Below are positions 29,878 to 32,217 of a stretch of DNA of 64,000 nt, piece by piece. Each line of letters starts with the position of its first letter. Within the stretch, counting starts at the first letter, position 1. Made by a program: the position numbers and the translations under genes. Where the stretch lies: NCBI RefSeq assembly GCF_000012885.1, contig NC_007498.2, forward strand, positions 62,001 through 126,000. The letters run 5' to 3'. This DNA is from Syntrophotalea carbinolica DSM 2380. Its GTDB lineage: Bacteria > Desulfobacterota > Desulfuromonadia > Desulfuromonadales > Syntrophotaleaceae. The notes beneath the pieces were generated by a model, which was not told the DNA's origin, searched no databases, and was given only the letters and a program-made list of their open reading frames with translations.

Positions 29878-30023
29878 AGGTCTCTCCCTTGGCTGTTTTT
29901 TGAGTTTATCCAAGGTGAGCCGGATGGCAAGTTTACTGAATTATCGAATGAAAAAAAGGCCTTTTACCACGAAGCTTGCTATATTGCAGAAAGCGGTAAG
30001 CCCTGTGGATATTGAAATAAAAA

Positions 30024-30089
30024 GGCTATACCCTTTCTTGGACAACCTCCCGGCAAGTTGGTTAATCCAAGAGACAAAGGGGTATAGCC
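30024..30089 (+). promoter_or_regulatory. Hairpin that covers the transposase ribosome site
   Basis: GGCTATACCC followed by TTT at 30024 pairs with AAAGGGGTATAGCC ending at 30089, directly before the ATG at 30090. The AAAGGGG that should serve as Shine-Dalgarno is inside the stem. Inner CTTGG/CCAAG can extend it. Such a structure would block translation of read-through transcripts from outside the element. Confidence 0.65.
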
Positions 30090-31340
30090 ATGAAGAAGAT
30101 TCAAACAAAAAAGCTTAAATCCGTCAACAGTAACACCCTTTTGGCTACGGTCGACATTGGAAAGAACGTTCTTTCCGGATACGCCCGCTGTCCTGATCGA
30201 AGCGAAGTGAAACCGTTTGATTTTTCCAACAATCTTAAAGGTTTTTCCCGCTTCTGGAACATCCTGATTCGAACGCAGAGGGCTTACGGTCTGGAGCAAA
30301 TTATTCTCGGCTTCGAATCCACCGGAGCATATGCCGAACCACTGATGCATTTTCTCAAAAACAAGCCGGTGCACCTGGTGCAGGTCAATCCGATGCATAC
30401 CAAGAGGGTGAAGGAACTTTGCGGCAATTCGCCGAACAAGACGGACCAGAAGGATCCGAAGGTGATCGCCGACATTATTGAGCTGGGCCATGGACTGACC
30501 GTGATAATTCCACAGGGAGCGGCAGCGGAACTACGACGGCTCACCCAGGCTCGGGAGAGAGCGGTCAAGCGGCGTACCGCACTGTTCAATCAGCTTCACG
30601 ACCTGGTGTTTATCAGTTTCCCCGAATTCCTCCAGGTCATGAAGGACATCAAGAGCAAAAGCGCCCAATACCTTCTGCGGCATCACCCGGGACCTGAAGA
30701 CGTTATGGCCCTGGGCCTAGAGTCCTTGGCCCAAGTTCTGAAACGTATCAGCTGCGGCAAGCTGAAACTGGCGAAAGCCCAGGCGCTTTTCGAGGCCGCC
30801 AGAAGTTCTGTCGGCATTCGCGAGGGACGCCTCGGCCTTGGTCTGGAGATTCAGGCAATGCTCGAAGCGATCGAGGTCTGTGAGCGCTTCGTGAAGCAAC
30901 TGGAAGCCGAGATGGCTCGGCATCTTGAAGAGATTCCTTATAGCCGCCTGCTTCTGTCCATGAAAGGCATCGGCCCGATCACCGTGGCAGGACTGATTGG
31001 CGAAGTTGCTGACTTTACGCATTTCGAAACTCAGAAAGAGTTACTCAAGTATGCCGGATTGGACCTTTTCGAAATCAGCTCCGGCAAGCACCGAGGACAG
31101 CGGCGCATCTCTAAGCGAGGCCGGCCGCTACTGCGTAAACTGCTCTTTTTCGCGGCCCTCAACACAGTTCGCAAGGGCGGCATCATGCATGAGCCTTACC
31201 AGGGGCATCTTCAAAAGGGCATGCCCCGTATCAAGGCCCTGATTGCCATCGCCCGCAAGCTGCTTGGTATCATGCTGGCCCTGGTGCGTACTCAGAGGGA
31301 ATATAGCCATCAGCAGACGCAACTAGCGCAGGCGGCATAA
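30090..31340 (+). CDS. IS110-family DEDD transposase/recombinase
   Basis: 416 residues, full family length. The N-terminal RuvC-like DEDD domain shows LLATVDIGKNV (first Asp), ILGFESTGAYAEPL (Glu) and KTDQKDPKVIADI (two Asp). A helical, coiled middle section follows. The C-terminal Transposase_20 domain has SMKGIGPITVAGLIGEV, YAGLDLFEISSGKHRGQ with the probable catalytic Ser, and ISKRGRPLLRKLLF. No frameshift or stop is seen, so the enzyme could be active. Confidence 0.95.
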   Translation: MKKIQTKKLKSVNSNTLLATVDIGKNVLSGYARCPDRSEVKPFDFSNNLKGFSRFWNILIRTQRAYGLEQIILGFESTGAYAEPLMHFLKNKPVHLVQVNPMHTKRVKELCGNSPNKTDQKDPKVIADIIELGHGLTVIIPQGAAAELRRLTQARERAVKRRTALFNQLHDLVFISFPEFLQVMKDIKSKSAQYLLRHHPGPEDVMALGLESLAQVLKRISCGKLKLAKAQALFEAARSSVGIREGRLGLGLEIQAMLEAIEVCERFVKQLEAEMARHLEEIPYSRLLLSMKGIGPITVAGLIGEVADFTHFETQKELLKYAGLDLFEISSGKHRGQRRISKRGRPLLRKLLFFAALNTVRKGGIMHEPYQGHLQKGMPRIKALIAIARKLLGIMLALVRTQREYSHQQTQLAQAA

Positions 31341-31350
31341 AAACTCCAGC

Positions 31351-31463
31351 GTGTAAGCGGGGTGACTACCATTTCGTGTTATTAAGGCGACTTCGTCGAC
31401 CTTCACGCAAAGCAATCTAGCACCCCGCTTGCACCTTAGCCCAGATAAAGCAAGGTTTGGGCT
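31351..31463 (+). ncRNA. Candidate bridge (guide) RNA region of the IS110 element
   Basis: The right non-coding end has a long stem, GTGTAAGCGGGGTG (31351-31364) with CACCCCGCTTGCAC (31421-31434), enclosing a 56-base loop with a smaller hairpin (GGCGAC/GTCGACC). A second hairpin follows: AGCCCA 31438-31443 with TGGGCT 31458-31463. The loop contains ACTTCGTCGACCTTC (31390-31404), equal to the bottom strand of the rejoined target except for one extra C. A structured RNA in the right end is known for the IS1111 group, where it guides recombination. No boundaries or transcription can be shown from sequence alone. Confidence 0.5.
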
Positions 31464-31529
31464 CTGTCGAGACCCTCGAATCACCAGTGTCGGGCAAGGT
31501 GCGATAAAAACTTGACTGGAATAAACCAG

Positions 31530-31703
31530 GTCACGAAGTACACGAAGGTAAGATCCGGATGTTAAGACCGAAATAGATCATGGGATTAAGCGATGGTAAA
31601 TCCGCAAGGATCAATCCGGAGTTTTTAATACGATCTGATCGGACCGTTGTCGGGAGGGCGTTGGTTCTCTTCGTGATCTCGGTGTGCTTCGTGGTGAAAA
31701 ATA
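31530..31703. repeat. Inverted repeat of 9-bp units (CACGAAG class), split by the IS
   Basis: The left arm is divided: 29962-29974 before the element and 31530-31548 after it (units CCACGAAGG, TCACGAAGT, ACACGAAGG). The right arm at 31663-31703 is the reverse complement type (CCACGAAGC, ACACCGAGA, TCACGAAGA on minus). About 115 bases of unique sequence lie between the arms, with no gene. Confidence 0.75.
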
Positions 31704-31788
31704 AGCCGTCAATCATCGCTGATTAAAGGATATCCCTTTAACGGTAAAAAAAACGATATGTTTTTAGAAGATGGGGAGGAATAACGCC

Positions 31789-32217
31789 ATGCCGGATGTT
31801 TCCAGCGATCGGGAATATCGACGCCGTGCCCTGGCCAAGATTCATATCGCCAAAAAGGAACTCGGCTTAAGCGATGAGGAGTATCGCGATCTGGTGAGTT
31901 CAGCCGTGCCAGGTAAGCAATCGGCGGCCGATCTGACCGATGGCGAATTGCGCTTACTCCTCGATCGATTGGCGGAACTCGGCTGGCGGCCGCGTCTGCC
32001 GCGGGTCGCGGAACGGCCTTTGCCGCCCATGGTATGGAAAGCGCGGGAACTGTGGTTGCAGCTGCACCGGGCGGGGAAGGTTCATAATCCGAGCTGGGCG
32101 GCTCTGGGCCGATTCACCAAGCGCATGACCGGCGTCGGCGATCTGCGACGTTTAAGCGTGAAGCAGGCCACGGTGGTCATCGAGGCGCTCAAACAGTGGC
32201 TGGAACGGGTGGAGTAG
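31789..32217 (+). CDS. Mu gp16/GemA-like protein, orphan phage gene
   Basis: 142 residues from the ATG at 31789 behind GGGAGGAA; an ATG six codons earlier has a poorer site. REYRRRALAKIHIAKKELGLSDEEYRDLVSS and LLDRLAELGWRPR are typical of DUF1018/GemA of Mu-like phages, which modulates host transcription and supercoiling. The C-terminal part has WLQLHRAGKVHNPSWAALGRFTKRMTGV. No other Mu gene is adjacent, so it is a prophage remnant or a domesticated gene. Confidence 0.85.
   Translation: MPDVSSDREYRRRALAKIHIAKKELGLSDEEYRDLVSSAVPGKQSAADLTDGELRLLLDRLAELGWRPRLPRVAERPLPPMVWKARELWLQLHRAGKVHNPSWAALGRFTKRMTGVGDLRRLSVKQATVVIEALKQWLERVE

What the first reader, a model, noticed from the sequence alone, without database searches (positions are those of the whole stretch)
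29962..31548. IS110 element sits exactly inside a 9-bp-period host repeat with an AG/CT core
Removing 29975-31529 restores CCACGAAGG-TCACGAAGT-ACACGAAGG without gap. AG stands at both junctions, equal to the CT core on the other strand. This defines both ends of the element from sequence alone and suggests that the element targets a dispersed repeat, which would give it many harmless sites.
Basis: seen in the sequence. Interest (0 to 1): 0.6.

Follow-up and report, generated by a model that had tools for sequence, protein, structure and literature searches.

The report
RNA-guided jumping gene in host repeat
A 1,555-base jumping gene that probably finds its landing sites with its own small guide RNA has inserted into one arm of a host repeat; its ends are exact, but its other copy breaks an ordinary gene, so it does not land only in harmless repeats.

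Summary
The element is exactly window 29975-31529 (1555 bp). A second, 100% identical copy has the same ends and interrupts a trmJ-type gene; five congeners carry that gene intact and align through the junction without a gained or lost residue. The shared AG (CT on the other strand) is the only ambiguity at the junctions. The host sequence is one arm of a palindromic CACGAAG-type intergenic repeat.

The element is an IS110-family (PF01548+PF02371) transposon with a predicted bridge RNA (31351-31502, covariation-supported) 3' of the transposase gene. Across relatives the two target-loop guides fit each element's own flanks better than swapped flanks, and the donor-loop guides co-vary with the element ends. 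Specificity therefore sits in the RNA, not in the repeat as such. Four of seven known left flanks in the clade are the ACCACNNAG start of this repeat; three are not. The repeat is sparse in this genome; 92 of 134 genomes of the order hold it.

Targeting of dispersed palindromes by IS110 elements is known (IS621, ISPpu9/10, ISPa11 in REP). This is a new member of a known kind, with IS1111-like RNA position and guide order but no IS1111-type inverted repeats.

The parts
29975..31529 (+). Complete IS110-family element (1555 bp), no target duplication beyond the shared AG
   Evidence: second identical copy and congener empty site
29973..29974 (.). AG core, left copy (equals AG at 31528-31529)
31528..31529 (.). 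AG core, right copy (last two bases of the element)
30090..31340 (+). Transposase (recombinase) gene, 416 aa, DEDD_Tnp_IS110 + Transposase_20
   Evidence: Pfam E 3.7e-22 and 7.6e-26; NF033542 206 bits, cut-off 140; best PDB fold matches IS621 and ISCro4 (low-confidence model)
31351..31502 (+). Predicted bridge RNA / seekRNA in the 3' non-coding region: two hairpins, each with an internal guide loop
   Evidence: alignment of 7 elements; 43 consensus pairs, 18 with two-sided changes; model R1 160 bits
31371..31383 (+). [quoted passage not shown]
   Evidence: own-flank matches exceed swapped flanks, 51 vs mean 30.8
31406..31412 (+). Left target guide (3' arm of target loop), same sense as left flank plus AG core (CGCAAAG)
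   Evidence: own-flank matches 45 vs mean 34.5 under swapping
31449..31454 (+). Right donor guide AGCAAG, complement of left end CTTGCT; AGCACG where the left end is CGTGCT (L018)
31483..31487 (+). Left donor guide ACCAG, same as right end ACCAG; ACAAG where the right end is ACAAG (L019, L031, L033)
31512..31517 (+). -35 box TTGACT of the predicted circle-junction promoter
   Evidence: 17 bp from TATATT when the ends are joined; same spacing in the window element and all three relatives with both ends known
29980..29985 (+). -10 box TATATT of the predicted circle-junction promoter
30024..30089 (+). 5' leader hairpin that pairs the AAAGGGG ribosome-binding site upstream of the start codon
   Evidence: folds in window and four relatives
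29967..29974 (+). Host repeat, first unit of left arm (CCACGAAG), cut off by the insertion
31530..31548 (+). Host repeat, rest of left arm (GTCACGAAGTACACGAAGG)
31668..31694 (-). Host repeat, right arm (inverted: CCACGAAGCACACCGAGATCACGAAGA)

Best explanation
This is an apparently intact IS110-family insertion sequence that moves by bridge-RNA-guided recombination. The transposase binds an RNA made from the 3' non-coding region. One RNA loop pairs with the joined element ends (donor) and the other with the two sides of the target around the AG core; strand exchange at AG inserts the circle without loss or gain of bases. It landed in the CACGAAG palindrome because that sequence resembles the RNA's programme (about CRCAAAG|(N)ACACGAA), and it landed in trmJ for the same reason. 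Shown: exact ends, two sites, covarying RNA, guide-flank and guide-end matching across relatives. Inferred: that the RNA is made, bound and used; circle formation; promoter use.
For: Exact ends and in-frame empty site. Transposase domains; best PDB matches are the IS621 and ISCro4 bridge-RNA complexes. RNA conserved and covarying, 18 of 43 pairs, and found with the RNA model in further genomes. Guide-flank matches: right guide 8 of 8 in L015 and L030, 7 of 8 in L019; left guide 7 of 8 in L013, L018, L019, L032. The sum over loci is the maximum of all swaps on both sides (right 51 vs mean 30.8, 13 of 20000 swaps reach it; left 45 vs 34.5, 56 of 20000). Donor loop co-varies with the ends (L018; L019/L031/L033). 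Joined ends form TTGAC(T/A)-17-TATATT in three of four elements and TTGATC-17-TATATT in L018. The mechanism is demonstrated experimentally for other family members (PMC11208160, PMC11187229).
Against: At the window site the left guide is a weak match on its own (5 of 8; a random flank ending in AG does as well 24% of the time), and the right guide fits (6 of 8) only in a register one base different from that at copy 2 (5 of 8). No expression or transposition data. The guide arms were located by eye on these loci before scoring; a register shift was allowed equally for own and swapped flanks.
Confidence: 0.88

Rival explanations
1. The element recognises the host palindrome itself (its hairpin or repeat structure), as a dedicated repeat-targeting transposon, and the RNA match is secondary.
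For: Four of seven left flanks in the clade are ACCACNNAG repeat starts, each cut after the first unit.
Against: Copy 2 and the flanks of L018, L019, L015, L030 and L031 are not such repeats, yet fit their own guides.
Confidence: 0.07
2. Site choice is nearly free: only the AG core matters and the repeat is a coincidence.
For: Imperfect guide fit at both sites in this genome.
Against: Only a handful of such repeat arms exist in 3.67 Mb, so a hit on one by one of two insertions is very unlikely by chance; own-flank matches reach the maximum over swaps.
Confidence: 0.03
3. The CACGAAG palindrome is cargo or part of a larger composite that moved together with the element.
For: Three congeners lack both the element and the palindrome in the same intergenic space.
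Against: Copy 2 has no palindrome around it and shares exactly the same ends; palindromes without the element occur in this genome (L006) and in most genomes of the order.
Confidence: 0.02

Closest known systems
IS621, ISPpu9, ISPpu10 (IS110 group) and ISPa11 (IS1111 group), which insert into REP palindromes (PMC1525189, PMC11208160, PMC11187229)
   Same: DEDD + Transposase_20 recombinase, short core, no real duplication, bridge RNA, target is a dispersed intergenic palindrome
   Different: Target here is the (CACNNAG)n palindrome and not all insertions are in it; RNA lies 3' of the gene, unlike IS621; transposase 416 aa versus 328 aa in IS621
IS1111 group with seekRNA (ISEc11, ISKpn4, ISPa11; PMC11187229)
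   Same: RNA downstream of the gene; the guide pairing with the top strand precedes the guide pairing with the bottom strand
   Different: No 11-13 bp subterminal inverted repeats at 7/3 bp from the ends (only TATTSCAG, 7 of 8, at 7 and 6 bp); transposase 416 aa instead of 330-350
IS110-type elements with a downstream non-coding region (noted as exceptions in PMC11187229)
   Same: Long transposase and 3' non-coding region
   Different: In the parts of that paper read here their guide order is not given; here the IS1111-like order is inferred
ISPpu9 leader (PMC8450116)
   Same: Transposase leader folds over the ribosome-binding site
   Different: No antisense RNA was looked for here

Membership tests
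IS110 family (ISfinder/NCBI sense) | PF01548 DEDD domain and PF02371 C-terminal domain | tested here: met
IS110 family (ISfinder/NCBI sense) | Catalytic DEDD residues and SG motif | tested here: met
   D22, E76, D119, D122 and S330-S331-G332 invariant in five relatives; assignment by motif, supported by the IS621/ISCro4 alignments
IS110 family (ISfinder/NCBI sense) | Scarless insertion at a short core | tested here: met
IS110 family (ISfinder/NCBI sense) | Bridge RNA with target and donor loops matching target and ends | tested here: met
   by sequence only:
IS110 family (ISfinder/NCBI sense) | Circular intermediate and RNA-dependent transposition | not testable with these tools
   circle-junction promoter predicted only
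IS1111 group | Non-coding RNA region downstream of the gene | tested here: met
   3' region 189 bp versus 115 bp 5'; RNA model at 31351-31502
IS1111 group | Top-strand guide precedes bottom-strand guide | tested here: met
IS1111 group | Subterminal inverted repeats of 11-13 bp, extensions of 7 and 3 bp | tested here: not met
   only a short imperfect 8-bp pair, read directly from the ends
IS1111 group | Transposase of 330-350 aa clustering with IS1111 transposases | tested here: inconclusive
   length 416 aa does not fit; the tree separates the clade (97/97) from IS4321, but deep branches are long and unreliable

The most novel reading that the evidence does not exclude
A clade of long-transposase IS110 elements has kept its bridge-RNA programmes tuned to variants (CACGAAG, CACTAAG, CACAGAG) of one very widespread, apparently undescribed palindromic intergenic repeat, so that RNA guide and repeat variant change together and give the element a portable set of landing sites across a bacterial phylum.
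Probability: 0.3. Interest if true: 0.55.

Novelty: new member of a known kind. Interest (0 to 1): 0.36.

Why it matters
It adds a well-delimited, apparently intact bridge-RNA element with two exact insertion sites and eight relatives with readable flanks whose guides and targets differ: a natural test set for bridge-RNA targeting rules, including tolerance of a one-base register shift. It also shows the IS1111-like guide order in an element without IS1111-type inverted repeats, which bears on how the two groups are separated. The host repeat is common enough across the order to deserve a description of its own.

Tried and rejected
Rfam gave no relevant match. Viral-contig scans with the protein and with its alignment found no relatives; plasmid relatives are at most 36.5% identical, and the RNA model did not match the two tested. 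My first reading of the RNA took the hairpin CGAC-TTC-GTCG for the target guide because it resembles the repeat; the alignment shows a covarying stem there (CGGC/GCCG, CGAT/ATCG), so it was dropped. An antisense match of the RNA model (24.6 bits) reflects the near-symmetry of the hairpin. The orthologous intergenic region in three congeners shows no element and no CACGAAG palindrome, so it is not an empty site for the window insertion itself. A tree of transposases was too long-branched to assign IS110 or IS1111. The structure model is of low confidence (pLDDT 66, pTM 0.41) and is used only as support.

Full report
1. Observation. The window is part of a 3,665,893-bp single-contig genome (the length agrees, from memory, with Pelobacter carbinolicus DSM 2380; taxonomy was not tested). 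The element occupies 29975-31529. A second copy at G000:C1:700001-701555 (minus) is identical over 1555 bp. Comparing the two, the shared block starts at 29972, since both left flanks end in AAG, and stops at 31529. The only real ambiguity at the junction is the AG that occurs at both ends.

2. Independent proof of the ends. Copy 2 lies in a gene of the TrmJ family: the part before it matches a TrmJ chain (4xbo) to residue 125 and the part after it resumes at residue 128, the two junction codons supplying 126-127. Five congeners have the gene uninterrupted (open frames of 255-268 codons). The joined flanks read GREDAGLTSDEVSLCSHSATIATSEDVGSLNLAQ against GREDSGLTSEEVSLCSHSAAIATAPEVGSINLAQ in L055, with no gap. 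As 1555 is not a multiple of three, no boundary shifted at one end only by one or two bases restores the frame. The element therefore inserts without loss or gain of bases, apart from the AG ambiguity.

3. The host repeat. The site belongs to a palindromic unit, 173 bp when joined: left arm CCACGAAGGTCACGAAGTACACGAAGG, right arm (inverted) CCACGAAGCACACCGAGATCACGAAGA. Units of the same kind, CCACNNAG-N(N)-CACNNAG-N(N)-CACNNAG, often with an inverted second arm and an unrelated spacer, are found in 92 of 134 genomes of the order, up to about 100 matches in one genome, while the reversed control pattern is absent in nearly all. In the window's genome it is sparse: 6 matches of the loose pattern, and four exact CACGAAGNNCACGAAG places (overlaps merged), of which site 1 is one. 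Three congeners with conserved neighbours (THUMP-domain gene, GemA-like gene, flavin reductase) have neither the element nor this palindrome in the same space; one (L065) has a degenerate CACAAAG/CACAGAG stretch there. So the palindrome and the element are probably two separate, nested arrivals (inference).

4. The element. One gene, 416 aa, with both IS110-family domains and above the NCBIfam cut-off for IS110 RNA-guided transposases. The best solved-structure matches by sequence and by fold are the IS621 and ISCro4 recombinases (the model is of low confidence). Relatives at 51-72% identity were found elsewhere in the order and phylum and in one Nitrospiraceae assembly, more distant ones (at most 36.5%) on Bacillota plasmids.

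5. The RNA. The 3' non-coding region is conserved among relatives although flanks are not. The alignment of seven sequences folds into two hairpins with large internal loops; 18 of 43 pairs show changes on both sides that keep the pair. A covariance model found the RNA in further genomes, including places where little or nothing of the transposase gene remains on the contig. This is the two-loop anatomy of bridge RNA (PMC11208160).

6. Guides. [quoted passage not shown] Examples: L015 arm complement GTACGTGTA, flank AG|TACGTGTA; L030 GGGTTAGG, flank AG|GGGTTAGG; L019 GGAAGAAA, flank AG|GAAGAAA; left side L018 TGCAAAG, L019 GTTACAG, L013 CACTAAG, L032 CACAGAG. Own pairs score the maximum among all reassignments of elements to flanks: right 51 against a mean of 30.8 (13 of 20000 shuffles reach it), left 45 against 34.5 (56 of 20000). 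In the second loop, AGCAAG complements the left end CTTGCT and becomes AGCACG where the left end is CGTGCT (L018); ACCAG equals the right end and becomes ACAAG where the right end is ACAAG (L019, L031, L033). The target arms vary freely while the donor arms stay nearly constant, as expected for target versus donor guides.

7. The two sites of this element. The RNA asks for about CRCAAAG|ACACGAA. Copy 2, CACAAAG|ACACTTC, fits the left guide (with one G-T wobble) and the first four bases of the right guide. The window site, CACGAAG|GTCACGAAG, fits the right guide over CACGAAG if the register is moved by one base, a register also seen in L015 and L030, and fits the left guide at five of eight positions. 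So neither site is perfect, and the repeat is one acceptable target among others.

8. Preference of the clade. Left flanks known: ACCACGAAG (window), GCACAAAG (copy 2), ACCACTAAG (L013), ACCACAGAG (L017), ACCACAGAG (L032), GTGCAAAG (L018), AGTTACAG (L019). Four of seven start the same class of repeat and are cut after the first unit. L015, L030 and L031 show right flanks outside it.

9. Expression. Joining the ends creates TTGACT-17-TATATT (TTGACA in L019, TTGATC in L018) in all four elements with both ends known, matching the junction promoter described for circles of these families (PMC11187229). The leader folds over the ribosome-binding site in window and relatives, as reported for ISPpu9 (PMC8450116). 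Both are predictions.

10. Classification and novelty. IS110 elements that insert into dispersed palindromes were catalogued in 2006 (PMC1525189), and the RNA mechanism was shown in 2024 (PMC11208160, PMC11187229). This element is a new member of that kind. It combines IS1111-like RNA position and guide order with no IS1111-type subterminal repeats and a long transposase, like some exceptions mentioned in PMC11187229. The part that is not explained is the host repeat itself; three text searches found no description, but the library lacks most subscription journals, and the supplement of the P. carbinolicus genome paper that lists multicopy sequences (PMC3543383) could not be read.

Noticed in passing
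29967-29974 + 31530-31694; L006, L034, L037, L039, L041, L049, L053: A palindromic intergenic repeat built of CACNNAG units at 8-9 bp spacing (CACGAAG, CACAGAG, CACCAAG, CACTAAG variants), whole unit about 75-210 bp, occurs in 92 of 134 genomes of the order with almost no control matches; origin and function unknown, no paper found.
   Followed up: partly
L003 1614-3921 (G000:C1 about 699613-701920): Copy 2 interrupts a trmJ-family RNA methyltransferase gene near its middle; a second family member at G000:C1:1815209 may cover for it.
   Followed up: partly
31780-32214: A GemA-like (phage Mu, PF06252) gene sits between a THUMP-domain gene and a flavin reductase gene in this genome and three congeners, so it looks like a resident gene rather than a prophage remnant.
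   Followed up: partly
L032 2193-2592: A relative in which the left end and nearly all of the transposase gene are missing, leaving a few bases, the tail of the gene and the bridge RNA next to an ACCACAGAG flank: possibly a non-autonomous RNA-only remnant (contig ends inside the RNA).
   Followed up: no
30024-30089: Strong conserved leader hairpin covering the ribosome-binding site of the transposase gene.
   Followed up: partly
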